Assembly: GCF_024721175.1 (NCBI RefSeq)
Contig: NZ_CP099399.1
Span: 186,001 to 250,000, forward strand
DNA length: 64,000 nt
Reading direction: 5' to 3'
Source: Rhizobium sp. Pop5
GTDB taxonomy: Bacteria > Pseudomonadota > Alphaproteobacteria > Rhizobiales > Rhizobiaceae
Under the pieces are notes generated by a model. The model did no database searches. It saw only the letters and a list, made by a program, of their open reading frames with translations, and was not told the DNA's origin. This document shows positions 12,084-49,913 of the stretch, in pieces. The translations under genes and the position numbers were made by a program. Numbering within the stretch: position 1 is the first letter of the stretch; the number at the start of each line of letters is the position of its first letter.

Positions 12084-12102
12084 ATATAAAAGCTCTCTAA
12101 AA

Positions 12103-12121: not shown

Positions 12122-12147
12122 CTATGTAGAGCAGTCATTTTGTAAAA

Positions 12148-12160: not shown

Positions 12161-12218
12161 ATTAATGGTTCTGTCAAAGATTTTGAACCATGAGGTCAGG
12201 GGGCGAAAGTCGGATTGC

Positions 12219-33813: not shown

Positions 33814-33889
33814 GCCCAGGTAGCTCAGTTGGTAGAGCAGCGGATTGAAAATCCGCGTGTCACTGGTTCGATTCCGGTCCTGGGCACCA
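33814..33889 (+). tRNA. tRNA-Phe (GAA anticodon), host of attL
   Basis: A complete cloverleaf with encoded CCA: acceptor GCCCAGG/CCTGGGC, D arm GCTC AGTTGGTA GAGC, anticodon stem GCGGA/TCCGC with loop TTGAAAA (GAA), T arm ACTGG TTCGATT CCGGT. Its last 50 bases are duplicated at 45628-45677, so the integrated element restores the 3' half of the gene. Confidence 0.97.
33840..33889. other. attL core (50-bp tRNA-Phe 3' half)
   Basis: Identical over 50 bases to 45628-45677; the sequences differ immediately on both sides (A/T before, T/C after). It covers the anticodon arm, T arm and acceptor end of the tRNA, the usual attachment site of tyrosine integrases. Confidence 0.93.
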
Positions 33890-34116
33890 TTAAAATCTCA
33901 AGCAAATTCAGGTAGTTGTTCGATAGCCCTAAACCGATTTCTTCGGTTTTCATGTCGCATCGTGTTGCAACTGATTTCCTAGCAATTTCAGTGGATACAA
34001 AAGGCTAACCGCAAATCCACGCGACATGAAATGCGACATGCTTCCGGCGACTTCTTGCCGCCAGCTCAAAGCCCTGCTTACTATCTGCAGTCGAAATTCG
34101 GCTGGGGGATAACGCC
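33890..34116. other. Left-end non-coding region with TGCGACAT-type boxes
   Basis: No gene is seen in these 227 bases. The octamer TGCGACAT is found reversed at 33952-33959 and direct at 34032-34039, with a CGCGACAT variant at 34020-34027. Matching boxes lie near the integrase gene and attR, so these are candidate integrase or excisionase arm sites. Confidence 0.5.
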
Positions 34117-34422
34117 GTGGCATTCAATTTCATACCGAACCCTCAGGGTAACGGCCTAAGCGACGAGGAATTCATTGCCAGCGCAATGCAGATGCAGAAG
34201 CATCATGAAGAGATGCTGCAGCAGCGGATCGAATTCGCCGTTATCGGGATCGTCGTCCTTTTTGCGTTGATATTCGTCTGCTCGAAATACAGGAAGATCA
34301 GTCGCGCGGCGTCAGAGGGATTCCTGAATTCTGCAGCTGCGATTGTCCGAGCCAAGAGGAACGCGGCACAAGCGATCAGCGAGGCGAAGGCTAAAATCCA
34401 GGAGCGTGCCGACGGCGATTAG
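34117..34422 (+). CDS. Small membrane protein at the left end of the element
   Basis: A 101-residue protein with one TM segment (FAVIGIVVLFALIFVCSK, about residues 48-66), a hydrophilic N-terminus and a basic, Ala-rich helical C-terminus. It starts with GTG 34117 after GGGGGATAACGCC. It is the only plus-strand gene in the left part and sits closest to attL, the usual position for a conversion or cargo gene. I do not recognise a family. Confidence 0.6.
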   Translation: MAFNFIPNPQGNGLSDEEFIASAMQMQKHHEEMLQQRIEFAVIGIVVLFALIFVCSKYRKISRAASEGFLNSAAAIVRAKRNAAQAISEAKAKIQERADGD

Positions 34423-34681
34423 TTCCCTTCGGCGGGGCCTGAAGAACGATCGGCGCGTCCAGGCTGATCTGAGGGGCAACGGTGAAGGTATTCCTGCCTT
34501 CTTCTAATTGGCGCTGTCTCCGGAGCCGGTCTGCCATGATTGCGGCTGATCTGATCTCGTCCCGAGATGCCCCGTGCTGCCGTCGAAGGCCGCCTATCTG
34601 GAGATCTGTCAGGAAGCGGAAGCGGCTTGATGCCAGGTGCTCGGTGATCGCGCGAAGGTCTGCCACGGTGTGTGTCCTCAT
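34391..34681 (-). CDS. Small hypothetical protein at the end of the late operon
   Basis: A 96-residue basic protein (LRAITEHLASSRFRFLTDLQ, then IGGLRRQHGASRDEIRSAAI). The ATG at 34681 has no clear ribosome site and its 3' end overlaps the convergent gene by 32 bases, so the call is uncertain. If real, it would be the last gene of the leftward late operon. The 137 bases before the next gene hold GGCCG/CGGCC repeats that could form a hairpin. Confidence 0.35.
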   Translation of the reverse strand: MRTHTVADLRAITEHLASSRFRFLTDLQIGGLRRQHGASRDEIRSAAIMADRLRRQRQLEEGRNTFTVAPQISLDAPIVLQAPPKGTNRRRHAPGF

Positions 34682-34824
34682 GGGCAAAAGAAAGGCCGAA
34701 CCTCGTAAGGCCGGCCGATCCCTTCGCGCCAGTTCATCCGTGGTCGCGAAAGAACATATAACAGAAATCGATTAGTCGGCGCCAGCCCATCTATTCTTGT
34801 CATCTGTGGGAGGACTGGAAGCGA

Positions 34825-35169
34825 TCATGACAGCAGCTTCTCTATCCCTCGATATACGGGTAGCACCGAACGCTGCCCATATTTCTTAAGCCTGTCCCTT
34901 TGCTGCCGGTGGAGGTAGCCAGGGCTCGCCCAGTTGCGCAGTGAGCTGATGAATAGGATGTCGAGCGCCGGCCGGACATAGGCCAGGTTGATGTATGGCG
35001 TGTTGTTCAAAAGGAGGTTCAGCAGATCGCCGGCTGTCTGTGGGACCTCGCCTTCCATGGCTGCATCTCGAGCCTTGAGCGGAAGGTTGATGATGTCGCT
35101 CAGAGTGGCGATTGCTGGCCCTGAGAACGTCTCCAGAGCGCCGCAATGGAATGTGGGAAGCTTATGCAT
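34825..35169 (-). CDS. Phage-type protein with NTPYINLAYVRPALD motif
   Basis: A 114-residue protein. The segment NTPYINLAYVRPALDILFIS followed by SPGYLHRQQRDRLKKYGQ resembles the C-terminal end of large internal virion proteins of podophages (pattern NxPFxNLxYxRxALD...SPGYLRRxE); that recollection is not verified. The protein would then be a short stand-alone tail piece. ATG 35169 has GGAG eight bases upstream and overlaps the previous gene by 8 bases, showing translational coupling. Confidence 0.65.
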   Translation of the reverse strand: MHKLPTFHCGALETFSGPAIATLSDIINLPLKARDAAMEGEVPQTAGDLLNLLLNNTPYINLAYVRPALDILFISSLRNWASPGYLHRQQRDRLKKYGQRSVLPVYRGIEKLLS

Positions 35170-35671
35170 CGACTTGCTCCAGTCGTTCTGTGCTTCGGAT
35201 AAGGGCATCGAGATCGACGGGGCGCCAGTCCGGTCCAACGGGCGCCACCGGTTCGGATTCGCAGAGAAATGGCGACATCAGGTCGAGCTGGGCGGCGAGG
35301 ACCGCCTTTGCCTCTTCCGTCTCATCTTCTGGCGGCGGTTCTTCGCAGACCCGGGCGACGATGCGGTGCATTGCCAGCAGGCTCGCCATCGGAACCGCGA
35401 ACACAAGCGGCGGGTTCAATTGGCCGAGCAGGAAAACCTCCTCGCCGGCAGCGGTCTCGGTTTTGCCGAGGTAGAGTTTGATCACGCCGATGGAGCCGTG
35501 CGTGTCAAGCATGCCGCGCAGCTCTTGAAATGGGCCGCGCGCATCGAGCACGACCGCAACGATATTGCCCGGCAGAATTTCGGCTGTCGCATCGGCCTGC
35601 AGTGTCGTGCTCTCCGGAACAAGGCCGCCCATGCATCGGCCTACGGCAAAGATTTCATAGGTTCCGGCCAT
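35162..35671 (-). CDS. Late-operon protein of unknown function
   Basis: A 169-residue protein (MAGTYEIFAVGRCMGGLVPE) with a beta-rich N-terminal half and an acidic C-terminus rich in Glu/Pro. I recognise no family. It lies four bases after the previous late gene and overlaps the next by 8 bases, so it belongs to the same translated unit. A minor virion role is a guess from position. Confidence 0.6.
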   Translation of the reverse strand: MAGTYEIFAVGRCMGGLVPESTTLQADATAEILPGNIVAVVLDARGPFQELRGMLDTHGSIGVIKLYLGKTETAAGEEVFLLGQLNPPLVFAVPMASLLAMHRIVARVCEEPPPEDETEEAKAVLAAQLDLMSPFLCESEPVAPVGPDWRPVDLDALIRSTERLEQVDA

Positions 35672-35675
35672 AGCC

Positions 35676-36068
35676 CTATGCCTTCACGATGAGATAGCCG
35701 ATCACCAACGTGCCATTGAAAGCCGCTGAAGGATGGATGTTCTGGATGGTAATGACCACAGAGCCGGCGCCAGGCGTGACGTCGGCGACCTTTGGCGTGC
35801 CAGTAGTGGCCGTACCCTTGCCGACGGTGACGAGAACCGTATCGCCGGCGGCGATCTTGGAATTGGTCAGGGTCAGGACATGGGTTGCGCCCGCTGCGGT
35901 GGTGAGCGCCGCAGTAGTGACCTTGCCCTGTGTCTTGCTCAGAGTCGCGGTGCTGGTGCCGCCGGTTCCCGATGCAGTCGCCGTCTTGGTGCCGTCGTCG
36001 GAGACAAGGCCACCGGTCGAGGGCTCGACGCCGAACTTGCGGCCGTAGAGAGAGTGATATGCGGGCAT
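35676..36068 (-). CDS. Virion decoration/spike-like structural protein
   Basis: A 130-residue Thr/Ala/Gly-rich, beta-strand-rich protein. The pattern TTAALTTAAGATHVLTLTNS, then VTPGAGSVVITIQN and AAFNGTLVIGYLIV, recurs in phage head-decoration or spike proteins as I remember them. ATG 36068 lies one base after the fibre gene stop; the longer frame to 36152 overlaps that gene and is rejected. It is probably on the outside of a capsid or baseplate. Confidence 0.65.
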   Translation of the reverse strand: MPAYHSLYGRKFGVEPSTGGLVSDDGTKTATASGTGGTSTATLSKTQGKVTTAALTTAAGATHVLTLTNSKIAAGDTVLVTVGKGTATTGTPKVADVTPGAGSVVITIQNIHPSAAFNGTLVIGYLIVKA

Positions 36069-36069
36069 G

Positions 36070-36984
36070 TTATTTGGTCCCTGTCTCGGCGGCGCCGCTG
36101 TATGAGAAGAAGTCGTTATCGGCCGCTTTGCGCGTGGCCAGCGTTGCGCCATCCCATTGAATGCCGGTGACGTAAGCGATGCCTGGGCTGTTCAGGGCAC
36201 GTCGGCCGATATTCCCGATGAGGTGGCACATGCCTTGGCCGATGCGGATAAGCGAGCCGCCAAGAGGTGCCGCGCCGCCAAGCATGGCGCAGCTATTGAT
36301 GAGGTTATCGTTGGCGAATAGCTCGCCGTTTGGCGCGTAGATCGCGCAGTCCGAAAGCCCGTTGAAGATGAAGCGAATGTTTGTGACGCCGAGGATGTCA
36401 ACCAGCACATAGGTCGACTTCATCTGCAGGATGCCGTCGAAATTGACGATGGTGTTGGCGACAGTGCCGGGGTTTGCCGCAAGCGGGATATCGGTGATGA
36501 TCCCGTTGCCGGCCCCGGCGATATGCCCCCAGTTATTCAGCGCCAGATTGGCGGCTGCTTCTGCCCGGTCGGCTTGGTCAGATGCTTCCTGTGCGAAAGC
36601 CGCTGCCGCCGCAACGCTCGTCGCGACATCAAACACGATCGACGTCACCCCGACGACGATCGGGTTGTCCGTCATCAGGGAATAGATATAGCCGCCGCTG
36701 ACGGTGCCATCCGTGATGGCGACCTGCGTGCCCTTCACGACGTCATTGGTTCTTGAGAAGTCCTTCGACCGGCGCCACGGCCCGGTATCGCAGACCCATA
36801 TGCCGTTTTCAGATGCCGCTGTCTGATTCTTCACAAGCACGCGGTCGCCAGTGACGACTGCTACCCCGTCAATTGTCTGCTGTGCGTATAGCGATATGTT
36901 CGCCGTCGTCGCTACTCGACATGGCCCTTTGATGGCGGCAGCAGAGGAAAGGCCATCAATTCGATCAACTTGGACGCTTCCCAT
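36070..36984 (-). CDS. Tail-fibre-type protein
   Basis: A 304-residue protein. Its first 120 residues match the common tail-fibre N-terminal module: CRVATTANISLYAQQTIDGV, GDRVLVKNQTAASENGIWV and WRRSKDFSRTND. An Ala-rich coiled coil (AAAAAFAQEASDQADRAEAA) is followed by a beta-rich, likely receptor-binding C-terminus. It would bind the host surface. It starts six bases after the upstream gene stop. This is the clearest virion structural gene of the element. Confidence 0.8.
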   Translation of the reverse strand: MGSVQVDRIDGLSSAAAIKGPCRVATTANISLYAQQTIDGVAVVTGDRVLVKNQTAASENGIWVCDTGPWRRSKDFSRTNDVVKGTQVAITDGTVSGGYIYSLMTDNPIVVGVTSIVFDVATSVAAAAAFAQEASDQADRAEAAANLALNNWGHIAGAGNGIITDIPLAANPGTVANTIVNFDGILQMKSTYVLVDILGVTNIRFIFNGLSDCAIYAPNGELFANDNLINSCAMLGGAAPLGGSLIRIGQGMCHLIGNIGRRALNSPGIAYVTGIQWDGATLATRKAADNDFFSYSGAAETGTK

Positions 36985-36990
36985 AAGCCC

Positions 36991-37704
36991 TTACCTTCCC
37001 GTCGCAATGAACTGGAGAACCCGTTTCATGTGCGGGATTTCCAGGCTGTTGAACCAATCCTTGAAGACTTCCATACCGGCCGCGCCAATGGCGGCCTTGA
37101 GATTGTCGACCCGCTTCCAGATCGTGGCGATCGTCTCCGGCGCATCGGAACCCCACTCCCGCACCAACTCGCGCCCAGGATCGCCCACGGCAAATTCCTT
37201 CACCTTGTCGGCGGTAACTGGAACGACGAAGGAAGGCGGTCCCATAACCAGCTGGCTATAAATCTGGTAGCGAAGAGGTTCGGGAAACGAACGATCGAAG
37301 CGCTCCATAAAGACTCGCTGGGCGCGCGCATCGCCCAGATCCCGCACCATGCCACCAACGGCCCCCTGAAGCCGATGTAGTTGCGTTTTGAAGCCGCCAA
37401 GGCGCTCCATATCCATCACGAACCTTGCGCCCTCTGGCGTTTCCATCATTTGATTGCGACTTACCTCGACCGCCATTGGATCGGTAGGACCGGCTTCACC
37501 GGTATCCTCCCGCATCATGGCGAGGAGTTCTCGATCCAGGCCTTCCGCAAAATATCGATCGATGTCGGTATCGCGGATGCGCTCGATCTCGGCCTTACGA
37601 GCCGGGGAATAGGTGCGGAAACGATCCTCCGCGATGGGCATAGAAACGCCAGCGTCTGCCACCGGGCTGGAGCTGCTTTCGGACCTTACCAGTTCGTTCG
37701 ACAT
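36991..37704 (-). CDS. Late-operon protein of unknown function (237 aa)
   Basis: A helical, acidic protein with no TM segment (ARKAEIERIRDTDIDRYFAE near residue 35). The N-terminal 30 residues are Ser/Val rich and probably disordered. No family is recognised; its place between terminase-linked genes and the fibre would allow a scaffold, head-tail connector or internal virion role. A 61-base gap precedes it. Confidence 0.6.
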   Translation of the reverse strand: MSNELVRSESSSSPVADAGVSMPIAEDRFRTYSPARKAEIERIRDTDIDRYFAEGLDRELLAMMREDTGEAGPTDPMAVEVSRNQMMETPEGARFVMDMERLGGFKTQLHRLQGAVGGMVRDLGDARAQRVFMERFDRSFPEPLRYQIYSQLVMGPPSFVVPVTADKVKEFAVGDPGRELVREWGSDAPETIATIWKRVDNLKAAIGAAGMEVFKDWFNSLEIPHMKRVLQFIATGR

Positions 37705-37764
37705 TCACGGGCTCCGGATAAGAGGTGGGCCATCCCTATGAGGCTTCGGGACGGCCCATGGCGG

Positions 37765-38241
37765 TTAGACGCGGCGCGGATAAAGGTTCGCGAGCGCCCT
37801 TTCGGCCAATGGTGAATTTGCAAAGGTGTCGGTCATCTTCGCTTCGTCGCGAAGGCGGATGACGTCATAGCCTGCGCCAGTCCAGCGCACGGAATAGGTG
37901 CCATCGGAGAACAGCTTTTCCGTTCGTTCGGAGAAACTGACGATGCGGGGTTTCGCCAGCAGGGCCATTTCGCTGTCGGCATTCTCGACGTAGGCTTCCG
38001 CCAGCCAGCTTTCATCGAAGGAGACGACGATAACCCGGTCGAACTTCCGCAGCGCCTTGTTGCTCAGCTGCACGTTCTTCCAGATCTCCGGTTCCTTCAG
38101 ATCGTCCGCAATCACGCCGGAAGGCAGGCGGGCGAAAATCTCCCGGAAGCTGAACCCCTGAGAATTGATGGTGACGGCGTTCGGATCGACACGCAGGCGC
38201 TTGCGCAAATCCGAGCTGGAAAGAGCGACGGTATCATTCAT
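37765..38241 (-). CDS. Late-operon protein of unknown function (158 aa)
   Basis: A 158-residue mixed alpha/beta protein (SSSDLRKRLRVDPNAVTINS at the start). It overlaps the upstream gene by 8 bases, so it is coupled to it. I recognise no domain. Confidence 0.6.
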   Translation of the reverse strand: MNDTVALSSSDLRKRLRVDPNAVTINSQGFSFREIFARLPSGVIADDLKEPEIWKNVQLSNKALRKFDRVIVVSFDESWLAEAYVENADSEMALLAKPRIVSFSERTEKLFSDGTYSVRWTGAGYDVIRLRDEAKMTDTFANSPLAERALANLYPRRV

Positions 38242-38866
38242 GGTTGTTCTCCGGAGTGATGACCTTCGAAATGTCGGAGGCGATTTTCAGGGCGTCGGAA
38301 TCGTGCCAGCTATCCAGAAGGCTCGTTCCGTCTGCCAGGTGAGGGCCGCGCGCGACCGGAAAGGAGATCCGGCCGAAGGAACTGCCGCAAACGGGACCGA
38401 GGATGGCCGCCATCCGCAGGCTTGCACGCAGTTTGACGCCGTTCTCATCCATGCTCATCGGCGCGTTGAGCCCGAGGGCCTGCATGGTGCGGGAAACGTC
38501 CTTGCTGGTGGCAAGCAACTGCTCCAGGGCGGACGCAAGCTTATAGACGGCTAGCTCTGCCTCTGTGATGGCCTTGGAGCGCGCATCAAGGACTTCGATG
38601 ATGTGTGCCCTCAGTTCGACCCTTCTCGCCCGTGCAGTCGCTTCTTGCTCTTCACGTCGACGACGCTCGGCCTCGACCTGTGCCGCGGCAATGGCGTCCA
38701 GATCCGCTTCCGCCTCGACGATCTGCCGGCTGTCGAAGGCTTTCCCCTCCAGCTTGGCAACGCCGCGCTCTCTGCGAAGCTCATCAAGGCGATCAGCGGC
38801 AATGCGCTGTCTGCCTTCCCAGTCTGGCACCACAGGCGCCGCGTCAGTGGTCAAAGCTTCTGTCAA
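38234..38866 (-). CDS. Coiled-coil late-operon protein (210 aa)
   Basis: Residues about 20-115 form a long, charged helix with repeated Ala/Glu/Arg heptads (AAAQVEAERRRREEQEATAR), followed by a compact C-terminal part. It starts within the terminase large subunit stop (4-base ATGA overlap). A scaffold-like or head-packaging accessory role would suit its shape and position, but this is inference. Confidence 0.6.
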   Translation of the reverse strand: MTEALTTDAAPVVPDWEGRQRIAADRLDELRRERGVAKLEGKAFDSRQIVEAEADLDAIAAAQVEAERRRREEQEATARARRVELRAHIIEVLDARSKAITEAELAVYKLASALEQLLATSKDVSRTMQALGLNAPMSMDENGVKLRASLRMAAILGPVCGSSFGRISFPVARGPHLADGTSLLDSWHDSDALKIASDISKVITPENNHE

Positions 38867-40350
38867 CGGCGACCTCCATTGCTGACGCGTCGGTTTTTCA
38901 TGTTCTCATGGCCCAAATTGACGACTGGATTCGAAAACCCGCGCCCGAGTTGTTCGGCCCTGCGCGTGGACGGCACATGCACCAGAGCACCAAGCGCGGC
39001 GTTCGCCACGTCGTCAGAGGCGCCGCGCATGTGATCGACGGAATCCTTGCCGTTGCGGGTTGTCCTGCGCTCGAGCTGTGAGATCTGGCCGACCAACCGT
39101 GGCAGATCGAGCAGCATGGCCGTCCCCGCCATCATCGAGGGCAGGGCATCGAGGTAGATTTCAGAGCGCGACCGTTCGGCAGGCACATATCGGATGCCGT
39201 GCAGCCGGAAGGCGTCAGAAACCCAGGTTCCGGCATACCTGTCGCCGGTCACGCTCGTGATCCGGTAAACGCCCAGCAGCTTGACGAACTCGCCAACAAC
39301 ATCGGCCGGCGCGAACGGGGGCTTCACTTCGCGCACGCAGTCCAAAACCTGCATGTCGCCCTCCCTGTGAGCCACAGACAGCGTCATGGAGTCGTGCACG
39401 CCGCCCGATGGGTCACAGAAAGCCACATACTTGAAGGTCTTGACGTAGGGGCGCTCTTTCACGCCAGGATCGACGCAGCGCTCTACCACCGCCCGATCAA
39501 TGAACGTCGACAAGTCGCCGCGGAACTGAGCATCCCACTCCGCCATCGCCGATTCCGGATCGTCACGGCGGGCATCCTCGATCACGGTGGCGTCGATCGT
39601 CGGATTGAAAACCTGTGTGCCGGCCTGCACCACCAGCACCGCGCCATCGTTGATCCCGAAGCTGCTCTGATGCTTGGTGAAGAGCAAGCCACGCTGCGCA
39701 TAGGGTGAACTGATCCCGATCAGCATCCCGTTCGTGGTGGCCAGGGCAGGCAAGACCGCTCGATAGGTCTCCACGTCAGGCAGTGACGTCGTCTCGTCCC
39801 GCCAGAAGCCTACCTCGTCGAAGATGGCAGCAAGCAGGGTGCGACCGCGCACGGTCCTGTAGTTGTTCGTATGGACCGAGATGGCGATGTTGCCCTGCAG
39901 CCGGATCTCGTCATTGGAGACGTTCTCCACCATGTTCCGGAGGATGGGGCTCTGGTCGAAGAATGCCCGGATGTAGTTGAACACGGACGCCGCCTGAATG
40001 CGGGAGGCAGCAAGCACAAGGATCGTGCCGACCTCACCCGGCGCCAGGCGGGAACTATGATCGGTGAAGGCCGCGATGTAGGAGGCCAGAGCAGCCGCTA
40101 CGCGCGACTTGCCGGAACGACGCCCGATGATGGCCCAAAGCTCTCTGACGCGCTGGTGAGGAACGTCACGCCCCCCGGCCACCCTTCCGAATGCCTCTAG
40201 CTCCTCTGCGCTCAGATCGAGCCCGAAGGCCGCACGAAGGATCGCAATCCATGTGTCCCAACTGGGGGAAGCACCAAGCGCAGCGCCGAGAAGCTTCTGG
40301 TCGCGCAGCGCCTTGTCGATGGTGATGGAAAGCAGCTTGGATGAGGTCAC
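38863..40350 (-). CDS. Terminase large subunit
   Basis: A 495-residue DNA-packaging motor. The ATPase has a Walker A-type IIGRRSGKSRVA (about 76-82) and Walker B LLAAIFDEVGF (Asp-Glu about 178-179), then SSPYAQRG. The nuclease half has acidic residues in FCDPSGGVHDS, TGDRYAG and DDVANAALGAL. It pumps DNA into preformed proheads, yet no portal or capsid gene is present in the element. It overlaps the small-subunit gene by 4 bases. Confidence 0.85.
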   Translation of the reverse strand: MTSSKLLSITIDKALRDQKLLGAALGASPSWDTWIAILRAAFGLDLSAEELEAFGRVAGGRDVPHQRVRELWAIIGRRSGKSRVAAALASYIAAFTDHSSRLAPGEVGTILVLAASRIQAASVFNYIRAFFDQSPILRNMVENVSNDEIRLQGNIAISVHTNNYRTVRGRTLLAAIFDEVGFWRDETTSLPDVETYRAVLPALATTNGMLIGISSPYAQRGLLFTKHQSSFGINDGAVLVVQAGTQVFNPTIDATVIEDARRDDPESAMAEWDAQFRGDLSTFIDRAVVERCVDPGVKERPYVKTFKYVAFCDPSGGVHDSMTLSVAHREGDMQVLDCVREVKPPFAPADVVGEFVKLLGVYRITSVTGDRYAGTWVSDAFRLHGIRYVPAERSRSEIYLDALPSMMAGTAMLLDLPRLVGQISQLERRTTRNGKDSVDHMRGASDDVANAALGALVHVPSTRRAEQLGRGFSNPVVNLGHENMKNRRVSNGGRR

Positions 40351-40739
40351 GCCGCTTCCCCGCTATACGTATCGGCAAGGTAGCTCTTGAGCGTTGGTGT
40401 GATGTCCTTGGCCTTGCGCTGCAAGCCGATGTCGCTCAGCAGCCGACGCAGCGCGTTGACGGTAGAGGTGAACTCGCCGATGGAGATATCCTCACCCTTC
40501 GCGAGCTTTGCCTCCTCTCCCTCGCACCACACCGCGAGGGTCGTGGCACGGCGCAGGAGCATCATCATGGCTTCAGAAGGGCTGTCGCCTAGGTCGGCTT
40601 TAAGCTGCGCCAAGATCTCACGGTAGCGCCGCATTGTGGCCGATCGCCCGTCGACGCCGTCGAGCAGCGCCTTACCGTTGCCAATGCGCGACTGAGCTTG
40701 CGGCTTTGCCTTGGCTACTGCTGGGCTTCCTTCGGCCAT
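40347..40739 (-). CDS. Terminase small subunit candidate
   Basis: A 130-residue, mostly helical protein immediately upstream of and overlapping the large terminase subunit, the standard position of the DNA-recognition subunit. The middle reads RSATMRRYREILAQLKADLG and the end LLSDIGLQRKAKDITPTLKS. ATG 40739 has GGAAGA upstream; ATG 40787 is an alternative with a poorer site. The family match is by position and helical pattern only. Confidence 0.6.
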   Translation of the reverse strand: MAEGSPAVAKAKPQAQSRIGNGKALLDGVDGRSATMRRYREILAQLKADLGDSPSEAMMMLLRRATTLAVWCEGEEAKLAKGEDISIGEFTSTVNALRRLLSDIGLQRKAKDITPTLKSYLADTYSGEAA

Positions 40740-40801
40740 GTCTGAGTGTCTTCCGTCGAACCATTCACTTCGCTCGGAAGCTATCATGCAGCACGCCTAT
40801 T

Positions 40802-40816
40802 CGCAACATTGTTGCG
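40802..40816. promoter_or_regulatory. Operator-like palindrome 1 in the late/right promoter region
   Basis: CGCAACATTGTTGCG is a 15-bp palindrome about a central T, in the 270-base gap between the leftward late operon and the rightward small genes. It is well placed to control the late operon. Confidence 0.45.
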
Positions 40817-40863
40817 ACACGCGTAAAATTATTCAACAATAACAGCATGATACAGAACGACAA

Positions 40864-40880
40864 GCGGATAAATTATCCGC
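40864..40880. promoter_or_regulatory. Operator-like palindrome 2 in the late/right promoter region
   Basis: GCGGATAAATTATCCGC is a perfect 17-bp palindrome about a central A. It lies 62 bp (centre to centre about 63) right of the first palindrome. It differs in sequence, so it may serve another regulator. Confidence 0.45.
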
Positions 40881-41061
40881 GCGTCACGGCGATTTGTGGA
40901 AGCAAATGAGTAAACCTCGATCAGCATAAACCCGGCGACGCAAAAATATCGGCGTAGGCTGGGGAAATTGGGTGAGGAGACCGCGAGTCTTTCTTGGTTG
41001 CTCTTGTCAGTCGAAATACAACCCAATACCGTCGACGCCTCAACGTGGAGGGATTCGGAAA

Positions 41062-41238
41062 ATGGCATTCAAAATTGGTGACATCGTCGTACTGAAATCT
41101 GGGGGGCCCAAGATGACTGTGGTCTCTGAGGAAGAACGTGGCCGTGTTTATTGCTCTTGGTTCGCCGGGGCTAAGGCAGAGAAATCTCAGTACCCTGTCG
41201 AAGCGCTTGAGGCCCCGAAGGAAGAGCCGAAGAAATGA
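41062..41238 (+). CDS. Small YodC/DUF2158-like protein
   Basis: A 58-residue protein, MAFKIGDIVVLKSGGPKMTV..., followed by YCSWFAGAKAEKSQYP. The pattern (IGDxVxLKSGGPxMTV...CxWF) is that of the DUF2158/YodC small SH3-like proteins, often carried by phages. GGAGGGATTCGGAAA precedes the ATG. The next gene begins 4 bases before its stop, so they are coupled. Confidence 0.8.
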   Translation: MAFKIGDIVVLKSGGPKMTVVSEEERGRVYCSWFAGAKAEKSQYPVEALEAPKEEPKK

Positions 41239-41504
41239 CGGCTACCGCGGCTGACGTTGCCGCATGGATGATGGAGCGTCTCAGCGCCGACGGGGCTCTC
41301 TATCAAGACGTGGCGGCATCAGAGATCGCCTCGAAGTTCGGAGAGGACTTCGTCACGATCAACGCAGCCGGCAATGTCGGCATCGCTAAGCCGGTGCTCA
41401 CTGCGTTTAACAAGCTTTCGGGCGATGATGTTGTCTGGAGCAGGGGCAATCGCTATTGGCGCAAGCGCGAGGACTACGACCTTCCTGGCCGGCAGCAGCC
41501 TTAG
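41235..41504 (+). CDS. DUF6953-like protein
   Basis: An 89-residue protein. The N-terminus reads TAADVAAWMMERLSADGALY with SKFGEDFVTINAAGNVGIAK and ends WRKREDYDLPGRQQ, matching what I recall of DUF6953: a small winged-helix-like fold with no known role. It overlaps the upstream gene in ATGA and is followed by a terminator-like hairpin at 41531-41553. Confidence 0.75.
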   Translation: MTATAADVAAWMMERLSADGALYQDVAASEIASKFGEDFVTINAAGNVGIAKPVLTAFNKLSGDDVVWSRGNRYWRKREDYDLPGRQQP

Positions 41505-41530
41505 CGCATTGCCTACCGCGAGAAAAAGAA

Positions 41531-41559
41531 GGCCTCGGTTTTGATCCGAGGCCGTTTTG
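41531..41559 (+). terminator. Rho-independent terminator
   Basis: GGCCTCGG (41531-41538) pairs with CCGAGGCC (41546-41553) over a 7-base loop, followed by GTTTTG. It lies 27 bases after the DUF6953-like stop and closes the two-gene rightward unit. Confidence 0.7.
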
Positions 41560-41575
41560 AATATTTGAGGAATGT

Positions 41576-41770
41576 ATGAGCATCCAAGATAGCCTGCTGG
41601 ATCCGCGATATTCGCTTTGGAAAGAAAAGAATGACCGCTGGACCATCATGGATAACTTCGAAGGCAAACCGGCGTGGGTCGATATGGCGAGAATGTTCTC
41701 TGTCGGCGAGGACGACGCGATTGCAGCGATCCGCCGCCTCAACCATCTTTATTCTACCCGAAACGATTGA
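41576..41770 (+). CDS. Small hypothetical protein
   Basis: A 64-residue soluble protein (PRYSLWKEKNDRWTIMDNFE, then MFSVGEDDAIAAIRRLNHLY). TGAGGAATGT precedes its ATG. Its stop directly abuts the stop of the convergent DUF6074-like gene. Function unknown. Confidence 0.55.
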   Translation: MSIQDSLLDPRYSLWKEKNDRWTIMDNFEGKPAWVDMARMFSVGEDDAIAAIRRLNHLYSTRND

Positions 41771-42076
41771 TCAGGCTGCTCCCCTCGGATTATTGCCGGT
41801 GCCACGACAGGAGAGCCTTGCCACTTCCTGATTGACGGCCGACCAGAAAGCGCCGATCTGCTCATCCTGGTCGTGCTCGGGAATGCCGACCTTGCTCAAC
41901 TGGATCTGCAGCCCCTCTGTGATGAGAGAGACGTAGTGATCCGCATGCCTGTCTGTGGTTTTGCTGGCGAGCTTTCGGGCGACATCCCGGATCTTGCCTA
42001 CGCGAGCAGTCATCGGGAAGGCTACGATCTTACAAGGTGGCTGCCAGGCGAAGAGGGGAAGGTTGATGTCACGCAT
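41771..42076 (-). CDS. DUF6074-like protein
   Basis: A 101-residue protein with LPLFAWQPPCKIVAFPMTAR and VGKIRDVARKLASKTTDRHA near the start, as in DUF6074 proteins common beside replication genes of rhizobial prophages. CATGGAGGCATCGA precedes the ATG. It is the last gene of the leftward early operon and is separated from the replication gene by an iteron (42105-42120). Confidence 0.75.
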   Translation of the reverse strand: MRDINLPLFAWQPPCKIVAFPMTARVGKIRDVARKLASKTTDRHADHYVSLITEGLQIQLSKVGIPEHDQDEQIGAFWSAVNQEVARLSCRGTGNNPRGAA

Positions 42077-42104
42077 TCGATGCCTCCATGGTAATACTAT
42101 ATGT

Positions 42105-42120
42105 GTCCCTCAGGTGGGAC
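42105..42120. repeat. Iteron copy 1
   Basis: GTCCCTCAGGTGGGAC, an inverted repeat (GTCCC/GGGAC). The same 16-mer recurs at 42201 and 42222. It lies in the non-coding gap after the replication-type gene. Confidence 0.75.
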
Positions 42121-42165
42121 TGTGAGAGGTTGAAAATCAGCCTGACGGTATCTGACATGGGACTG

Positions 42166-42624
42166 TCAGCCATATTTCACCTTCCTTTGGGGTCTCTTCT
42201 GTCCCTCAGGTGGGACTGTGCGTCCCTCAGGTGGGACCGTAGATTCTTCATCGGGTGCCCACTTCATGAATTCTTTGGTCGGCAATTCGCCGGTGACACC
42301 ACAAGGGTACTCGGTTAACCGCCACTCTGTGGCTACCCTGTTTTTGATGTTGAATCCGCTCAACTTGGTTCTGGCAATGAAGCCTTTGCCCTCTAGATTG
42401 TCGAGGCTGCGGTTCGCCGTGTTCTTGCTGACATGTATGCCGGCGGCCAGCTCTCGACAACCGAGGGCCAGCCGGCCGTTGTTCAAGCCGTCGAACTTCC
42501 ACTTGAAGAACAAGTAGGCAGCTCGATCGACGGGCGTAAGGGCATCCCATGCGGCGGAGCGCATGATGTAGCCGTCGATCATGACGAACTTCGCCTTACC
42601 CTTACGCTTGAACCTGCTGCTCAT
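42166..42624 (-). CDS. Replication-type winged-helix protein
   Basis: A 152-residue basic protein. The middle has an HTH: YLFFKWKFDGLNNGRLALGC followed by RELAAGIHVSKNTANRSLDN, and it resembles the N-terminal DNA-binding half of phage replication initiators and DnaD-like proteins. ATG 42624 overlaps the upstream stop (ATGA) and has AAAGG upstream. The C-terminal coding DNA contains two copies of a 16-bp iteron, encoding TVPPEG twice, like lambda O with its origin inside the gene. Confidence 0.7.
   Translation of the reverse strand: MSSRFKRKGKAKFVMIDGYIMRSAAWDALTPVDRAAYLFFKWKFDGLNNGRLALGCRELAAGIHVSKNTANRSLDNLEGKGFIARTKLSGFNIKNRVATEWRLTEYPCGVTGELPTKEFMKWAPDEESTVPPEGRTVPPEGQKRPQRKVKYG
42201..42216. 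repeat. Iteron copy 2
   Basis: Identical to copy 1; inside the 3' end of the replication-type gene. Start-to-start distance to copy 3 is 21 bp, two helical turns. Confidence 0.75.
42222..42237. repeat. Iteron copy 3
   Basis: Identical 16-mer GTCCCTCAGGTGGGAC, in-phase with copy 2. The three copies together are the best origin candidate of the element. Confidence 0.75.
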
Positions 42625-42815
42625 CCGTGCGCCTTTCGATAGATGCGGAACTTGTTGGAGAGTGCCGCCGCTTCGCATGCCTCCAATGCTGAGAGGCCGA
42701 AGCGCTCTCGAATGGCGGGAATGATCGGCTGCGGCGCCGGAGCCTGCTCAGCCAGCCACTGGGCCGCCTGGACGACGGCCTCGGAGTGCTGATGCTCGGG
42801 AGGGGTTAATGCCAT
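42621..42815 (-). CDS. Small phage-type protein with C-terminal HTH-like helix
   Basis: A 64-residue protein (RFGLSALEACEAAALSNKFR towards the C-terminus). The form 'RFGLSAxEACEAxxLAxKxR' recurs in small early genes of rhizobial prophages as I recall. It overlaps both neighbours (10 and 4 bases) and so is translationally coupled in the early operon. Confidence 0.7.
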   Translation of the reverse strand: MALTPPEHQHSEAVVQAAQWLAEQAPAPQPIIPAIRERFGLSALEACEAAALSNKFRIYRKAHG

Positions 42816-43102
42816 GTGTAGCCTCCTTCATCTGCTGTGTAGTTGGTATCGAGCTCATCCCCGTTCGGTTCAGTGTCGCCGCCGTCCTCGTAGTGCTCGT
42901 TTTCCAGTTCGGTGTCGCACGCTTCGGCCGAGATAGGCAGGTACCAGTCCGACTGTGATATGTTTTCAGTAGCCCCAAGCGAGGGCTCATTGTCATTGTC
43001 GGGCTCGAGATCGGGATCGCCGTCGAGGAGGTCGAGGAGATCTATAAGCTCCTCTATTTTCGCCTCCAGGCGTTCGCGAGACTGCAGAAGTTGCTTGCTC
43101 AT
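42806..43102 (-). CDS. Acidic phage-type protein
   Basis: A 98-residue, strongly acidic protein. A predicted N-terminal coiled coil (SRERLEAKIEELIDLLDLLD) precedes DGDPDLEPDNDNEPSLGATE and an Asp/Glu-rich tail. Similar GDPDLExDxxEPSLG proteins are common next to early phage genes in rhizobia. It is coupled to the upstream gene by ATGA. A DNA-mimic or regulatory role is speculative. Confidence 0.7.
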   Translation of the reverse strand: MSKQLLQSRERLEAKIEELIDLLDLLDGDPDLEPDNDNEPSLGATENISQSDWYLPISAEACDTELENEHYEDGGDTEPNGDELDTNYTADEGGYTWH

Positions 43103-43509
43103 GCCAACTCCTCCCGAGCCGCTTGGGATGCCGGCCGTTCGTCGCCCACGACGAGAACGAAGCGAACCTTATGGTCGATGACATGGCGCCACGACAGATC
43201 CGGATGCGCCTTTGCCATCGCCTCGGTGAGAGCCTTTGCGTGGAAGCTGGCAAGTTCGGCCGGGGTTGCCTGGTCGAAGAAGGCATTCCAGTCGAATGCC
43301 TTGGCCTCCACCACAACAGCAGTTGATGGGACGGCGGCCGCGGTCAGAACTCCGAGAAACCCGCGGCGTGAGAGGGCTGGCGTTGACACCACGCCGGTGC
43401 TATCGTGACATGTGTTCATTTTCTTTTCCTTTGTCGGAATGATTGAACCATGGTCCGGAGAGGTTGCCGCCTCTGCCGGGCCTTTTGCTTTCTGAAGGGC
43501 CGTGCTCAT
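43099..43509 (-). CDS. Element protein with twin-arginine-like signal
   Basis: A 137-residue protein. An SRRGFLGVLTAAAVPST twin-arginine-like export sequence appears at about residues 49-65, followed by a short soluble part. ATG 43509 has GGAGG and an ATGA overlap with the HTH gene; the internal ATG 43419 (AAGGA site) would put the twin Arg nearer the N-terminus and could be the real start. A Tat substrate in an early phage operon is unusual; function unknown. Confidence 0.6.
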   Translation of the reverse strand: MSTALQKAKGPAEAATSPDHGSIIPTKEKKMNTCHDSTGVVSTPALSRRGFLGVLTAAAVPSTAVVVEAKAFDWNAFFDQATPAELASFHAKALTEAMAKAHPDLSWRHVIDHKVRFVLVVGDERPASQAAREELA

Positions 43510-43694
43510 GCGGCCTCCGTGAAAAATGCGATGAGCTTGCTGCGGTCGGCGACCCATCGATCACCAACCTTTTTGGCAGGCAATTGGCCGGTCTCCAGCA
43601 TGTGAAATGTCTGGCGACGGCTCCGTCCAATGATCTGTGCAATCTCAGCGCCGCCCCAGACTAGATCCAGTTTCTTTTCAGATTTCTCTTCCAT
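43506..43694 (-). CDS. Small helix-turn-helix (excisionase/AlpA-like) protein
   Basis: A 62-residue MerR-like/HTH17 protein: WGGAEIAQIIGRSRRQTFHM followed by LETGQLPAKKVGDRWVADR. This is the size and pattern of excisionases and AlpA-type regulators. ATG 43694 follows AAGGAAG. It is the first gene of the leftward early operon, divergent from the Arc-like and integrase genes, and so is a candidate excisionase or early activator. Confidence 0.8.
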   Translation of the reverse strand: MEEKSEKKLDLVWGGAEIAQIIGRSRRQTFHMLETGQLPAKKVGDRWVADRSKLIAFFTEAA

Positions 43695-43713
43695 TCGGCT
43701 TCCTTTCGAAGAA

Positions 43714-43728
43714 CCACGGTTGCACCAC
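43714..43728. promoter_or_regulatory. Divergent-switch box, left copy
   Basis: CCACGGTTGCACCAC lies 20 bases upstream of the HTH start. An inverted near-copy lies at 43783-43797 on the Arc-like side, and the palindrome GGTGATCACC at 43740-43749 sits in between. This arrangement suggests a repressor switch. Confidence 0.5.
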
Positions 43729-43782
43729 ACGTTAACCACGGTGATCACCTAACGCCAGTGGGTACTTGATGTCAAGACCTCG

Positions 43783-43797
43783 GTGGTGCATACGTGG
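43783..43797. promoter_or_regulatory. Divergent-switch box, right copy
   Basis: GTGGTGCATACGTGG is the inverted counterpart of 43714-43728 with two mismatches. It lies 27 bases upstream of the Arc-like ATG. Confidence 0.5.
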
Positions 43798-43823
43798 TCC
43801 ACTAACAGAAAAAGGATAGCGTG

Positions 43824-44267
43824 ATGGGCCGAGCCGACCCGCAATTAAAGCTCCGACTAACCGAGGAGATGAAAGAGATCATATCGGCTGCAGCCAAGGC
43901 CAACGGGCGATCGGTGAACTCCGAAATTGTTGCGAGGCTTGAGGCCTCCGAGGCCGGTGACGGCGCGCAGGTCGCGGAACTGAAGAGGCAACTCCACTCG
44001 GAACATGAGGCGTACTTGCGCCTAGAGAGCGTTTTCGATTCCCAAATGAACCTAATCGAGGATTTCAGGCGAGTTATTAGGCGGGCAACAGAGGAGGGCA
44101 TTGGCCAGGCGAAGACCATTGAAGCACTGTGCAATATACTGATTTCCCTCGATGCCGCGCCGTCGGCCGAAGTTGTCGACATGGCGAAGCGTCTGCTCGA
44201 GGTAGCCATTGCGCAGAGAAACGACCTCACAGAGACCGTAGAACGCCAGAAGCAGAGAGCGACTTGA
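43824..44267 (+). CDS. Arc-family (ribbon-helix-helix) repressor-like protein
   Basis: A 147-residue protein. The N-terminal ribbon-helix-helix reads PQLKLRLTEEMKEIISAAAK then ANGRSVNSEIVARLE, the Arc/Mnt pattern. The C-terminal 90 residues are helical and may oligomerise. ATG 43824 (AAGGA seven bases before) is chosen over GTG 43821. It is divergent from the HTH gene and upstream of integrase, so it is probably the element's repressor. Confidence 0.85.
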   Translation: MGRADPQLKLRLTEEMKEIISAAAKANGRSVNSEIVARLEASEAGDGAQVAELKRQLHSEHEAYLRLESVFDSQMNLIEDFRRVIRRATEEGIGQAKTIEALCNILISLDAAPSAEVVDMAKRLLEVAIAQRNDLTETVERQKQRAT

Positions 44268-44280
44268 CAAGCGGATTTAT

Positions 44281-44298
44281 TGCGACATAGTGCGACAT
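44281..44298. repeat. Paired TGCGACAT boxes upstream of int
   Basis: TGCGACAT occurs at 44281-44288 and 44291-44298, ten bp apart (one turn). The same octamer lies at 45585-45592, 36 bases from attR, and at 34032-34039 on the attL side. These are candidate integrase arm sites or excisionase sites. Confidence 0.5.
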
Positions 44299-44341
44299 AT
44301 TCCCGGTGAGTTACACCGAATGACATGTGAGAGGCACGGCA

Positions 44342-45571
44342 ATGTCGATCCGCAAGCGCAAATGGACCACTGCATCCGGCGAGCAAAAAGAGGCCTGGGT
44401 TGCTGACTACGTCGACGGGCAAGGCACTCGCCGCCTCAAGACATTCGATCGCAAGAAGGATGCAGACGCCTTCCTTTCCACGGCAAAGGTAGAGGTTCGC
44501 GACGGGACTCACGTTGCCGAGGCGGCAAGCATCACGGTCAAGGCGGCCGGCGATTTGTGGCTGAAGAGCGCTGAAGCTGCCGGCCTCGAGCGCTCCACCC
44601 TAGACCAATACCGGCAGCACTTGACGCTCCATATCGTTCCCTTCATCGGCGCGACGAAGCTCTCTGCGCTGAACATTCCGACTGTGCGCGAATTTGAGGA
44701 CAAGCTTCGCCATGAGGATCGATCGCCGGCAATGGTGAAGAAGATCCTCGTTAGCCTTGGATCGCTTCTGGCTGACGCCCAGGAGCGCGGTAAGGTGGCT
44801 CGCAACGTCGTGCGCGACATGCGTGGCGTCCGCCGTAAAGGCAAGGAGCGCCAGCAGGAGAAGCGCCAGAAGGGGAAACTCAAGATCGGCGTGGATATCC
44901 CGACCCGGCAGGAAGTAAAGGCCATTGTAGGGGCCATGGAAGGCCGCTGGCGGCCGTTGCTGCTTACGGCGGTGTTCTGTGGCCTCAGAGCCTCCGAGCT
45001 GCGTGGGCTGCGCTGGAGCGACGTCGATTTCGAGAAGCGCCAGATCCGTGTGCATCAGCGCGCTGACCGGTTCAACGAGATCGGCCGGCCGAAGTCGGAA
45101 GCCGGCGAGCGCATGATTCCGGCGCCGCCGATGGTCATCAACACCCTGAAGGAATGGAAGCTCTCCTATCCCAGGCCGCTCACCGGCAGCCTCGATGATG
45201 AAGACAACCCGATCCGCGAGGAGGCGAGAGACACACACCTCGTATTCCCGAACGGACTGGGCAACGTCGAGTCCTTGGCCAACATCATCAACCGCGGGCT
45301 CATCCCCACGCAACTCCGGGCAGGGGTGACGGTTGGCACTGGCGACGAGGTTCAGGCCAAGTACACAGGCATGCATTGCCTTCGGCACTTCTACGCTTCG
45401 TGGTGCATCAACCGGACTGAGGAAGGCGGACTGGGCTTGCCGCCGAAGGTCGTGCAGGAGCGCCTCGGTCACTCCTCGATCGTGATGACGATGGACACCT
45501 ATGGGCACCTCTTCCCGCGTGGAGACGATGCCGACGAGCTTGCTGCAGCCGAGCGTTCGCTATTGGCATGA
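44342..45571 (+). CDS. int: Tyrosine-family site-specific integrase
   Basis: A 409-residue recombinase. The N-terminal arm-binding region (MSIRKRKWTTASGEQKEAWV) is followed by a SAM-like core-binding domain and a catalytic domain with Arg215 in GLRASELRGLRW, His345/Arg348 in HCLRHFYA, His in RLGHSS and nucleophile Tyr387 in DTYGHLF. All catalytic residues are present. ATG 44342 is preferred to 44327. TGCGACAT boxes precede it at 44281 and 44291. The gene lies next to attR and inserts the element in tRNA-Phe. Confidence 0.95.
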   Translation: MSIRKRKWTTASGEQKEAWVADYVDGQGTRRLKTFDRKKDADAFLSTAKVEVRDGTHVAEAASITVKAAGDLWLKSAEAAGLERSTLDQYRQHLTLHIVPFIGATKLSALNIPTVREFEDKLRHEDRSPAMVKKILVSLGSLLADAQERGKVARNVVRDMRGVRRKGKERQQEKRQKGKLKIGVDIPTRQEVKAIVGAMEGRWRPLLLTAVFCGLRASELRGLRWSDVDFEKRQIRVHQRADRFNEIGRPKSEAGERMIPAPPMVINTLKEWKLSYPRPLTGSLDDEDNPIREEARDTHLVFPNGLGNVESLANIINRGLIPTQLRAGVTVGTGDEVQAKYTGMHCLRHFYASWCINRTEEGGLGLPPKVVQERLGHSSIVMTMDTYGHLFPRGDDADELAAAERSLLA

Positions 45572-45584
45572 CTTGCAACATGGA

Positions 45585-45592
45585 TGCGACAT
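45585..45592. repeat. TGCGACAT box near attR
   Basis: Another copy of the octamer, between the integrase stop and attR. TTGCAACATG at 45573-45582 is a weaker relative. Suggested arm-type site. Confidence 0.45.
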
Positions 45593-45627
45593 GAGCGGAA
45601 AAACGCTATAGAAAACAACGGACGACT

Positions 45628-45677
45628 GCGGATTGAAAATCCGCGTGTCACTGGTTCGATTCCGGTCCTGGGCACCA
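45628..45677. other. attR core (50-bp duplicate of tRNA-Phe 3' half)
   Basis: Perfect 50-base copy of 33840-33889. It does not form a full tRNA, so it is the right junction left by integration. Confidence 0.93.
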
Positions 45678-47727: not shown

Positions 47728-48021
47728 CTACTTGACTTCGGTGACCGTCAGCTTGCCGTTCACGCGTTCGGCGACGAACTCGATGCTCGAACCTTCCTTC
47801 AGCTTTTCGAGCAGAGCCGGATCTTCGACCCGGAAGACCATCGTCATCGCGGGCATGTCGAGGTTCTTCAAGTCCTCGTGCTTGATGGTGACCTTCTGCG
47901 CCTTGGCGTCGACCTTGTTGACGACGCCCTTGGTGAGTTCCTGGGCAAACGCTCCAAAGGCCGCGCTGACGGAGAGCAAGGCGGCGACACCGATTTTGAT
48001 TATTACGTTTTTCATCTTCAT
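47728..48021 (-). CDS. CusF-like periplasmic copper-binding protein
   Basis: A 97-residue protein with a signal peptide (about residues 1-27, cleaved after AFGAFAQ) and the CusF OB-fold: HEDLKNLDMPAMTMVFRVED, with the His and two Met copper ligands, and a C-terminal FVAERVNGKLTVTEV. CusF hands Cu(I) to the CusCBA efflux pump; no CusA or CusB is in this window. It is 18 bases after the cupredoxin gene. Confidence 0.88.
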   Translation of the reverse strand: MKMKNVIIKIGVAALLSVSAAFGAFAQELTKGVVNKVDAKAQKVTIKHEDLKNLDMPAMTMVFRVEDPALLEKLKEGSSIEFVAERVNGKLTVTEVK

Positions 48022-48038
48022 GGCTCCTTTATCGAGGG

Positions 48039-48518: not shown

Positions 48519-48552
48519 GCTTAGATCCTTTTTTGATGTTGGATGTTGAGCT

Positions 48553-49899: not shown

Positions 49900-49913
49900 G
49901 ATGGGTTCCTTTC

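What the first reader, a model, noticed from the sequence alone, without database searches (positions are those of the whole stretch)
33840..45677. Compact 11.8-kb tRNA-Phe element with terminase and virion-type genes but no capsid or portal: satellite candidate
A perfect 50-bp att duplication, complete integrase, replication-type gene with iterons, TerS/TerL and fibre-like genes are present, yet no portal, major capsid, protease or lysis gene is recognisable. Almost all neighbouring genes overlap by 1-10 bases, which decayed prophages rarely keep. A satellite that brings its own terminase and fibre and borrows a helper capsid would look like this. A deleted prophage, or a virion with unrecognised capsid proteins among the 158-237 aa unknowns, are the alternatives.
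Basis: partly seen in the sequence, partly recalled or inferred. Interest (0 to 1): 0.75.

Follow-up and report, generated by a model that had tools for sequence, protein, structure and literature searches.

The report
Phage satellite with borrowed virion parts
An 11.8-kb piece of mobile DNA in a soil bacterium's chromosome looks like a parasite of bacterial viruses: it carries its own DNA-packaging motor and pieces related to one kind of virus's shell-building, DNA-injection and tail-fibre proteins, but no recognisable gene for the shell or its gate, and relatives seem to follow the same plan with other viruses.

Summary
In detail: an 11.8-kb element at tRNA-Phe with a perfect 50-bp att repeat, integrase, rep-like gene, TerS/TerL, and no recognisable portal or capsid. 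It does not look like a trimmed prophage.

Of 33 bacterial-genome loci read around related TerLs, 0 have a recognised portal, 31 have the same TerS, 31 an integrase gene, and 18 are bounded by att repeats at tRNA genes (9.9-16.9 kb). Two closed 9.3-9.7-kb metagenome circles show the same plan. Downstream of TerL many relatives carry isolated virion parts: tape measure, baseplate hub, ejection protein, fibre, sometimes protease and capsid protein.

For the window element a likely helper type was found: podophage-like prophages in two genomes of the same genus. Five window genes match them in pieces: the scaffold's C-terminal motif, the fibre N-terminus, the last 98 residues of an 861-aa internal virion protein, a whole 130-aa protein, and (weakly) a 24-residue N-terminus.

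Best reading: an undescribed family of phage satellites that package with their own terminase into helper-built, chimeric virions. V. cholerae PLEs were shown in 2026 to use their own tape measure and hub. Transfer and helper dependence are untested here.

The parts
33814..33889 (+). tRNA-Phe; its last 50 bp (33840-33889) are one att copy
   Evidence: ARAGORN; repeat; core at two places only
45628..45677 (+). second att copy, 50 of 50 identical
44342..45571 (+). tyrosine integrase, 409 aa
   Evidence: PF00589 8.6e-15, phrog_1 1.1e-62; 57-61% to L017, L019, L021 copies
43824..44267 (+). Arc-like DNA-binding regulator
   Evidence: PF03869 2.3e-12
43506..43694 (-). small HTH protein, excisionase-like
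   Evidence: HTH_17 9.7e-4, below cut-off; phrog_1840 excisionase 0.003; 69% to L017 and L019 copies
42166..42624 (-). winged-helix rep-like protein, 152 aa
   Evidence: weak phrog_8102 replication initiation 0.003; 38%, 6e-34 to a protein of the closed circle L074
42104..42241 (+). three 21-nt repeats, possible origin
   Evidence: family D3; sequence read
40347..40739 (-). TerS, 130 aa (by family and position)
   Evidence: same family beside TerL in 31 of 33 genome loci; no Pfam/PHROG match
38863..40350 (-). TerL, 495 aa
   Evidence: phrog_2 8.6e-27; invariant columns; alignment
38234..38866 (-). 210-aa protein of unknown role
   Evidence: 18 homologues, 58-97%, the named ones in Rhizobium; none in viral contigs; no family match
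37765..38241 (-). 158-aa protein of unknown role
   Evidence: phrog_26742 (unknown function) 1.7e-6; 49% to L014
36991..37704 (-). 237-aa protein; residues 31-71 match the last 41 residues of the podophage scaffold
   Evidence: hhalign 98.1%, E 6.8e-14; blastp about 1e-7 to 1e-3 to scaffolds in viral contigs and G383; 30 listed homologues incl. the query
36070..36984 (-). 304-aa fibre: N-terminus shared with the prophage fibres, C-terminus different
   Evidence: 64% over 1-116 to H386_52, 51% over 1-205 to H383_49; phrog_11518
35676..36068 (-). 130-aa protein, full-length relative of a prophage protein encoded upstream of the prophage TerL
   Evidence: 81-82% over 129 residues; dN 0.12, dS 0.8; phrog_18251, unknown function
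35162..35671 (-). 169-aa protein of unknown role
   Evidence: 22 listed homologues incl. the query; 34% to L018, beside its ejection-protein gene; none in viral contigs
34825..35169 (-). 114-aa protein matching the last 98 residues of an 861-aa internal virion (ejection) protein
   Evidence: 71%, 3e-45; phrog_684 729-820/840; dN 0.23, dS 1.55
34117..34422 (+). 101-aa protein: first 24 residues resemble the N-terminus of a prophage internal virion protein (weak), then a hydrophobic stretch
   Evidence: 54% over 24 aa, E 1.5e-5 to H386_49; 0.003 to H383_46; hydropathy peak at 38-56

Best explanation
33840-45677 is an integrated phage satellite, one member of a family of tRNA-integrated elements in rhizobia and relatives that have their own small and large terminase and no recognised portal. 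Proposed cycle. (1) The integrase, with the small HTH protein, excises the element; anatomy only. (2) The rep-like protein and 21-nt repeats amplify it; inferred. (3) When a podophage of the type seen in G383/G386 grows in the cell, that helper supplies portal, capsid protein, scaffold and tail; inferred. (4) The 237-aa protein, which holds the C-terminal motif of the helper scaffold on another body, competes with the scaffold and redirects capsid assembly; inferred from the motif and from CpmB of SaPI1. (5) The satellite's own TerS and TerL recognise its DNA and fill the heads through the helper portal; inferred from intact motifs and conservation. (6) The fibre, 130-aa protein and ejection-protein pieces replace or join helper counterparts, so the particle is chimeric and may bind or enter different cells; inferred.
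For: TerL relatives: 12 of 297 family genomes incl. own; 22 of 148 genus genomes at E<=0.001, 10 of them strong incl. own; 29 of 397 order genomes, 10 strong and near full-length incl. own, plus one split copy. Of 33 genome loci read, 0 have a portal among up to 11 genes downstream, 31 have the same TerS, 31 an integrase gene in the locus. The local portal HMM found portals in 30 of 79 viral-contig loci, but it was seeded from 4 of those, so this is a weak positive control. 18 of 33 have att repeats, 9.9-16.9 kb. All 19 unassigned genes of 300 aa or more inside those 18 elements were scanned, 10 in PHROGs and 9 in Pfam: no portal. Closed circles L072 (9,705 b) and L074 (9,338 b): integrase, TerS, TerL, tape measure, no portal. 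Helper type. The closest relative, L014, has a 615-aa relative of the prophage's 618-aa internal virion protein and a fibre with the same N-terminus. dN/dS of the 114- and 130-aa pieces against G383 is about 0.15, against 0.08-0.16 in four prophage-versus-prophage controls. Homologues of the 210-, 237- and 169-aa proteins occur in several Rhizobium strains, with locus tags a few genes apart in some. Precedents: PLE tape measure and hub in virions (PMC12987554 section 8); CpmB shares the scaffold C-terminal motif (PMC5644958 passages).
Against: No excision, induction, packaging or transfer was seen. The own genome's only match to the 861-aa ejection protein is the element itself, so no G383-type helper is resident. 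How one TerL family would serve unrelated portals is unexplained. The scaffold-like motif is 41 residues and lies near the N-terminus of the 237-aa protein, not at its end as in CpmB. The ejection-protein piece is 98 of 861 residues and might be an inhibitor or remnant; dS for it is near or past saturation (infinite against G386). In 27 of 60 TerS-positive portal-less loci no virion part was recognised, and some loci are cut by contig ends. The two matching prophages differ from each other in TerL too, so a different TerL alone does not exclude descent from such a phage. An empty site could not be shown: right of attR the window does not match the 29 other genus loci compared beyond short stretches.
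Confidence: 0.75

Rival explanations
1. A prophage that lost its head and most tail genes by deletion and is now decaying.
For: It carries pieces of virion proteins; one is only the last 98 residues of an 861-aa protein. The matching prophages differ in TerL among themselves, so terminase exchange happens in that group. One relative, L128, has a TerL in two pieces.
Against: Perfect att, full-length integrase and TerL, tight gene spacing. 33 genome loci with this TerL and none with a recognised portal. Against the prophages the pieces are re-ordered and set on new bodies: the scaffold C-terminus lies near the N-terminus of the 237-aa protein, and the 130-aa gene is upstream of TerL there and downstream here. 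The 114- and 130-aa pieces show low dN/dS.
Confidence: 0.09
2. A phage-defence island that blocks helper assembly with decoy virion pieces and is not itself packaged.
For: Scaffold-like and ejection-protein pieces could act as dominant inhibitors; tail-assembly interference by prophages and satellites is published (PMC11364771, passages incl. part of the abstract).
Against: A conserved TerS/TerL pair with intact motifs has no evident use in a pure decoy. Similar elements at many tRNA genes and closed circles point to active spread. Interference may be a by-product of packaging.
Confidence: 0.13
3. A complete small phage whose portal and capsid are too divergent to recognise.
For: Several unknowns of 114-237 aa; no fold prediction was possible.
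Against: No unassigned gene reaches 300 aa; coding is 91%. Pieces of another phage's scaffold, fibre and ejection proteins suggest a borrowed head. Bounded relatives down to 9.9 kb also lack a recognised portal.
Confidence: 0.03

Closest known systems
V. cholerae PLE satellites (PMC12987554: section 8 and passages read)
   Same: Satellite-encoded tape measure and baseplate hub enter chimeric tails; deleting tmp cut transduction by 96-99.9% in three PLEs. In this family L112 has tape measure and hub (PHROGs), L115 and L117 a hub (local HMM).
   Different: The words terminase, TerL and portal do not occur in that paper's main text, so the terminase cannot be compared from it; this family has TerS and TerL. 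The window element has scaffold, fibre and ejection pieces of a podophage-like prophage, not a tape measure.
Capsid-forming PICIs (as described in PMC10690885 passages; Alqurainy 2023 not read)
   Same: Own TerS and TerL; some relatives here add protease and major capsid protein; some cf-PICIs carry putative tmp genes (PMC12987554 figure legend).
   Different: cf-PICIs are described as encoding portal, head-tail connectors and HNH; none of the 33 genome loci here has a recognised portal.
SaPI1 CpmB capsid-size redirection (PMC5644958, passages read)
   Same: A satellite protein shares the scaffold's C-terminal coat-binding motif on a different body.
   Different: Here the motif is residues 31-71 of 237 and the helper is podophage-like; binding is untested.
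MulchRoom/MiniFlayer Streptomyces satellites (PMC10690885, passages read)
   Same: Own small and large terminase.
   Different: They also encode portal, capsid, scaffold and adapter, and parasitise virulent phages.
Virus Rctr16k (KX853514)
   Same: 16.7-kb partial record with a distant TerL (28%), integrase and replication gene.
   Different: Its place in the TerL tree is unsure (long branch); incomplete record.

Membership tests
Phage satellite (general) | Small integrative element with integrase and att, lacking a full virion gene set | tested here: met
   (virion gene absence by sequence only)
Phage satellite (general) | Needs a helper phage for transfer | not testable with these tools
   Helper type inferred only
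cf-PICI | Own TerS and TerL | tested here: met
   TerL by profile; TerS by family and position
cf-PICI | Own portal, major capsid protein, protease, connectors | tested here: not met
   No match; three genes of 300 aa or more, all assigned; folds not tested
PLE-like chimeric tail satellite | Own tape measure protein | tested here: not met
   None in the window element; in relatives, 21 of 60 TerS-positive portal-less loci by local HMM
PLE-like chimeric tail satellite | Own versions of helper virion proteins inside its particles | tested here: inconclusive
   Genes present; particles not seen
PICI / SaPI (classical) | Uses the helper's large terminase (passages) | tested here: inconclusive
   An own TerL is present, which argues against; its use was not tested
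P4-like satellite | Packaged by the helper terminase at cos (passage) | tested here: inconclusive
   Own TerS and TerL present, which argues against; cos sites not tested
Defective prophage | Collinear with a larger prophage minus a deletion | tested here: not met
   Against the two matching prophages, in G383 and G386, order and domain make-up differ

The most novel reading that the evidence does not exclude
A previously undescribed, widespread satellite family combines its own terminase with interchangeable helper-matched virion modules: scaffold decoy, fibre and DNA-ejection pieces for podophages; tape measure and hub for myophages; protease, capsid protein and tape measure for siphophages. 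It docks one TerL family on many unrelated helper portals and tailors the DNA-ejection step, perhaps to enter helper lysogens that exclude the helper itself.
Probability: 0.35. Interest if true: 0.88.

Novelty: new variant of a known kind. Interest (0 to 1): 0.78.

Why it matters
The satellites in the papers seen here use helper terminase subunits or, like cf-PICIs and MulchRoom, bring terminase together with portal and capsid. This family brings the motor but no recognised gate (portal) to dock on, so it would make the rules of terminase-portal fit testable. It extends the 2026 finding of satellite tape measures in V. cholerae to another group of bacteria and, in the window element, to podophage scaffold, fibre and ejection proteins. 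It also gives rhizobia, where the paper searches made here found no described satellite family, a candidate family with a likely helper type.

Tried and rejected
Simple deletion of a prophage: disfavoured after comparison with the prophages in G383 and G386. Resident helper in the own genome: a stretch with a portal-like gene exists (23% to the G383 portal), but no window protein matches that 40-kb stretch at 1e-3 and the ejection protein has no other copy. Capsid or portal among the unknowns: the 210- and 237-aa families were compared by hhalign with capsid, protease, portal, adaptor, scaffold and unknown satellite families; of the best 25 pairs printed only 237 vs scaffold (90.7%) and, in relatives, a ~128-aa family vs protease (74.7%) stood out. 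Fold prediction: tool off. Empty site: tRNA-Phe with its upstream flank gives a match in 148 of 148 genus genomes, some partial, but the right flank is not shared with the 29 others compared. Relatives of the 210- and 169-aa proteins in viral contigs: none found. Plasmid records: no near match to 35162-40787. The TerL tree shows portal-bearing rows clustered but not as one clade, so no single origin is claimed. For L014 I took the 66-bp repeat at tRNA-Asn as att although a 91-bp and a 61-bp repeat pair lie nearby. That superinfection exclusion drives the swapping was not tested.
Full report
What is there. The element spans 33840-45677, between two identical 50-bp copies of the tRNA-Phe 3' end. 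It has an integrase, Arc-like and HTH regulators, a rep-like gene with three 21-nt repeats, TerS, TerL, eight called genes beyond TerL on the minus strand, and a 101-aa gene on the plus strand near tRNA-Phe. Coding is 91%, and only TerL, integrase and a 304-aa fibre reach 300 aa. TerS is named by position and family, not by a library match.

A family. TerL was searched in 297 genomes of the family (12 with a match, own included), 148 of the genus (22 at E<=0.001, of which 10 strong, own included) and 397 of the order (29, of which 10 strong and near full-length, own included, plus one split copy). The sets partly overlap. One more close relative came from a Mesorhizobium assembly (75% identity). 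In all 33 genome loci were read with my own gene caller and local HMMs: portal among up to 11 genes downstream in 0, same TerS close upstream in 31, an integrase gene in the locus in 31. Some loci are cut by contig ends (L023, L027, L116). Of the two without TerS close upstream, L027 is cut there and L023 has it further away. In viral contigs (80 loci kept of 111) 79 gave a TerL by my call; 30 of these have a portal downstream. Of 61 TerS-positive loci in both sets one (L039) has a portal; of 52 others 29 do. The portal HMM was seeded from four of the viral-contig loci, confirmed in PHROGs, so its 30 finds are only a weak control. The tree of 111 TerL rows clusters portal-bearing rows (7 changes against 26 in shuffles) but needs more than one switch.

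Boundaries and circles. 18 of the 33 genome loci have direct repeats that bracket the element at a tRNA gene (Phe, Asn, Ser, Thr, Cys, Arg, Glu, Met, Ala or Gln). Lengths are 9.9-16.9 kb; L111 has an interrupted repeat, and L128's TerL is in two pieces. In 15 loci no such pair was found in the stretch held. Of 80 viral-contig stretches, not all whole contigs, four whole ones end in direct terminal repeats of 60-123 bp. Two, L072 and L074, close into 9.7- and 9.3-kb circles with integrase, TerS, TerL, a 245-aa gene and a tape measure, and no portal. L068 (9.4 kb) has TerS, TerL, protease, capsid protein and tape measure but no recognised integrase; L076 (8.1 kb) has TerL and a capsid protein and fits less well.

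What follows TerL. Single-protein PHROG scans gave tape measures of 571-934 aa (L017, L021, L022, L041, L111, L112, L127), a baseplate hub (L045, L112), head protease (L040, L041), major capsid protein (L022, L023, L041), internal virion proteins (L014, L018) and a fibre (L016). By local HMM, 33 of 60 TerS-positive portal-less loci carry at least one such part; in 27 none was recognised. Some elements carry only small genes after TerL (for example L025, L026, L113, L114, L118). All 19 unassigned genes of 300 aa or more inside the 18 bounded elements were scanned: 10 in PHROGs gave a transposase, a weak tape measure, unknowns or nothing; 9 in Pfam gave mostly primase or helicase-type domains. 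A 206-297-aa family of unknown role follows TerL in 17 loci. The tape measure of L112 matches, at both ends, one in a phage-like gene cluster of G316 that also holds a relative of its hub; that cluster was not annotated further.

The helper type of the window element. A genus search with the 237-aa protein met a short match in G383 (E 2.2e-4), and viral contigs gave 18 loci. I looked at nine loci: eight gave a host gene of 308-330 aa, which in seven lies directly before a 278-280-aa gene; in the eighth (G383) the next stretch has a 280-aa gene. In all eight a gene of 546-573 aa lies a little upstream. In G383 these neighbours are a podophage-type head-tail adaptor (phrog_332) and a major head protein (phrog_3437), so the middle gene is the scaffold by position; PHROGs lists it as unknown. 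Profile comparison aligns residues 31-71 of the 237-aa protein with the scaffold's last 41 residues (98.1%, E 6.8e-14). The G383 prophage and one in G386 (portals 79% identical) match four more window proteins: 114 aa to the last 98 residues of the 861/864-aa internal virion protein (70-71%), 130 aa full length (81-82%), the fibre N-terminus (64% over 116 in G386, 51% over 205 in G383), and, weakly, 24 residues of a second internal virion protein (54%). The relative L014 has a 615-aa protein related to that second protein and the same fibre N-terminus. dN/dS of the 114- and 130-aa pieces against G383 is about 0.15, against 0.08-0.16 in four prophage-versus-prophage controls; dS is high, and infinite for one pair, and the test does not say on which branch selection acted. 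Relatives of the 861-aa protein are called putative internal virion proteins in Pelagibacter phage records.

Interpretation. A plain deletion does not readily make this: the 130-aa gene lies upstream of TerL in the prophages but downstream here, the scaffold's C-terminal motif sits near the N-terminus of another protein, and the fibre has another C-terminus. The window TerL is only distantly related to that of G383 (34% over 71 residues; both match phrog_2); since the two prophages also differ in TerL, that point alone is weak. A satellite that supplies its own motor and swaps chosen parts of the helper particle explains the anatomy. Published tests on PLE (own tape measure and hub in virions, PMC12987554 section 8) and on CpmB (scaffold-like C-terminus contacting coat, PMC5644958 passages) show that such steps can happen; neither was tested here. 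Searches for a published description (listings, with passages of five papers) showed no rhizobial or alphaproteobacterial family of this kind; subscription papers and preprints are mostly not held.

Limits. Gene calls are mine; local HMM counts are lower bounds; no fold prediction was possible; the genus name is not given to me (named homologues are mostly Rhizobium). Excision, particles, transfer and helper dependence are inferred.

Noticed in passing
window 47728-51377: Genes right of attR look like a copper/metal resistance cluster (named from the translations by eye). Sequence right of attR does not match the 29 genus loci compared at tRNA-Phe beyond short stretches, so tRNA-Phe may be a hotspot.
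   Followed up: partly
L216-L217 (G349:C7), joined positions ~12.1-21.5 kb: An integrase, a 311-aa member of the unknown family and a tape measure 92% identical to that of satellite L111, with no TerL of this family called beside them (the only TerL match of G349 is weak and elsewhere): the terminase may be optional.
   Followed up: partly
L017, L019, L024, L038, L050, L072, L074, L110, L111, L120, L122-L128, shortly after TerL: A 206-297-aa protein family of unknown role in 17 loci; a candidate terminase-portal adaptor or capsid-size factor (a guess).
   Followed up: partly
L023 (G131:C4) 3997-12223: A head protein, a PAPS-reductase-like gene and a transglycosylase-like gene lie between TerS and TerL.
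   Followed up: no
L163-L164 (G000:C2 2150001-2189800): The own genome has a portal-like gene distantly related (23%) to the G383 podophage portal, in a phage-like stretch.
   Followed up: partly
L128 (G670), from 8845 on: TerL in two pieces with other genes called between: a visibly interrupted family member.
   Followed up: no
window 34117-34422: 101-aa gene at the tRNA end: helper-like N-terminal 24 residues followed by a hydrophobic stretch.
   Followed up: partly
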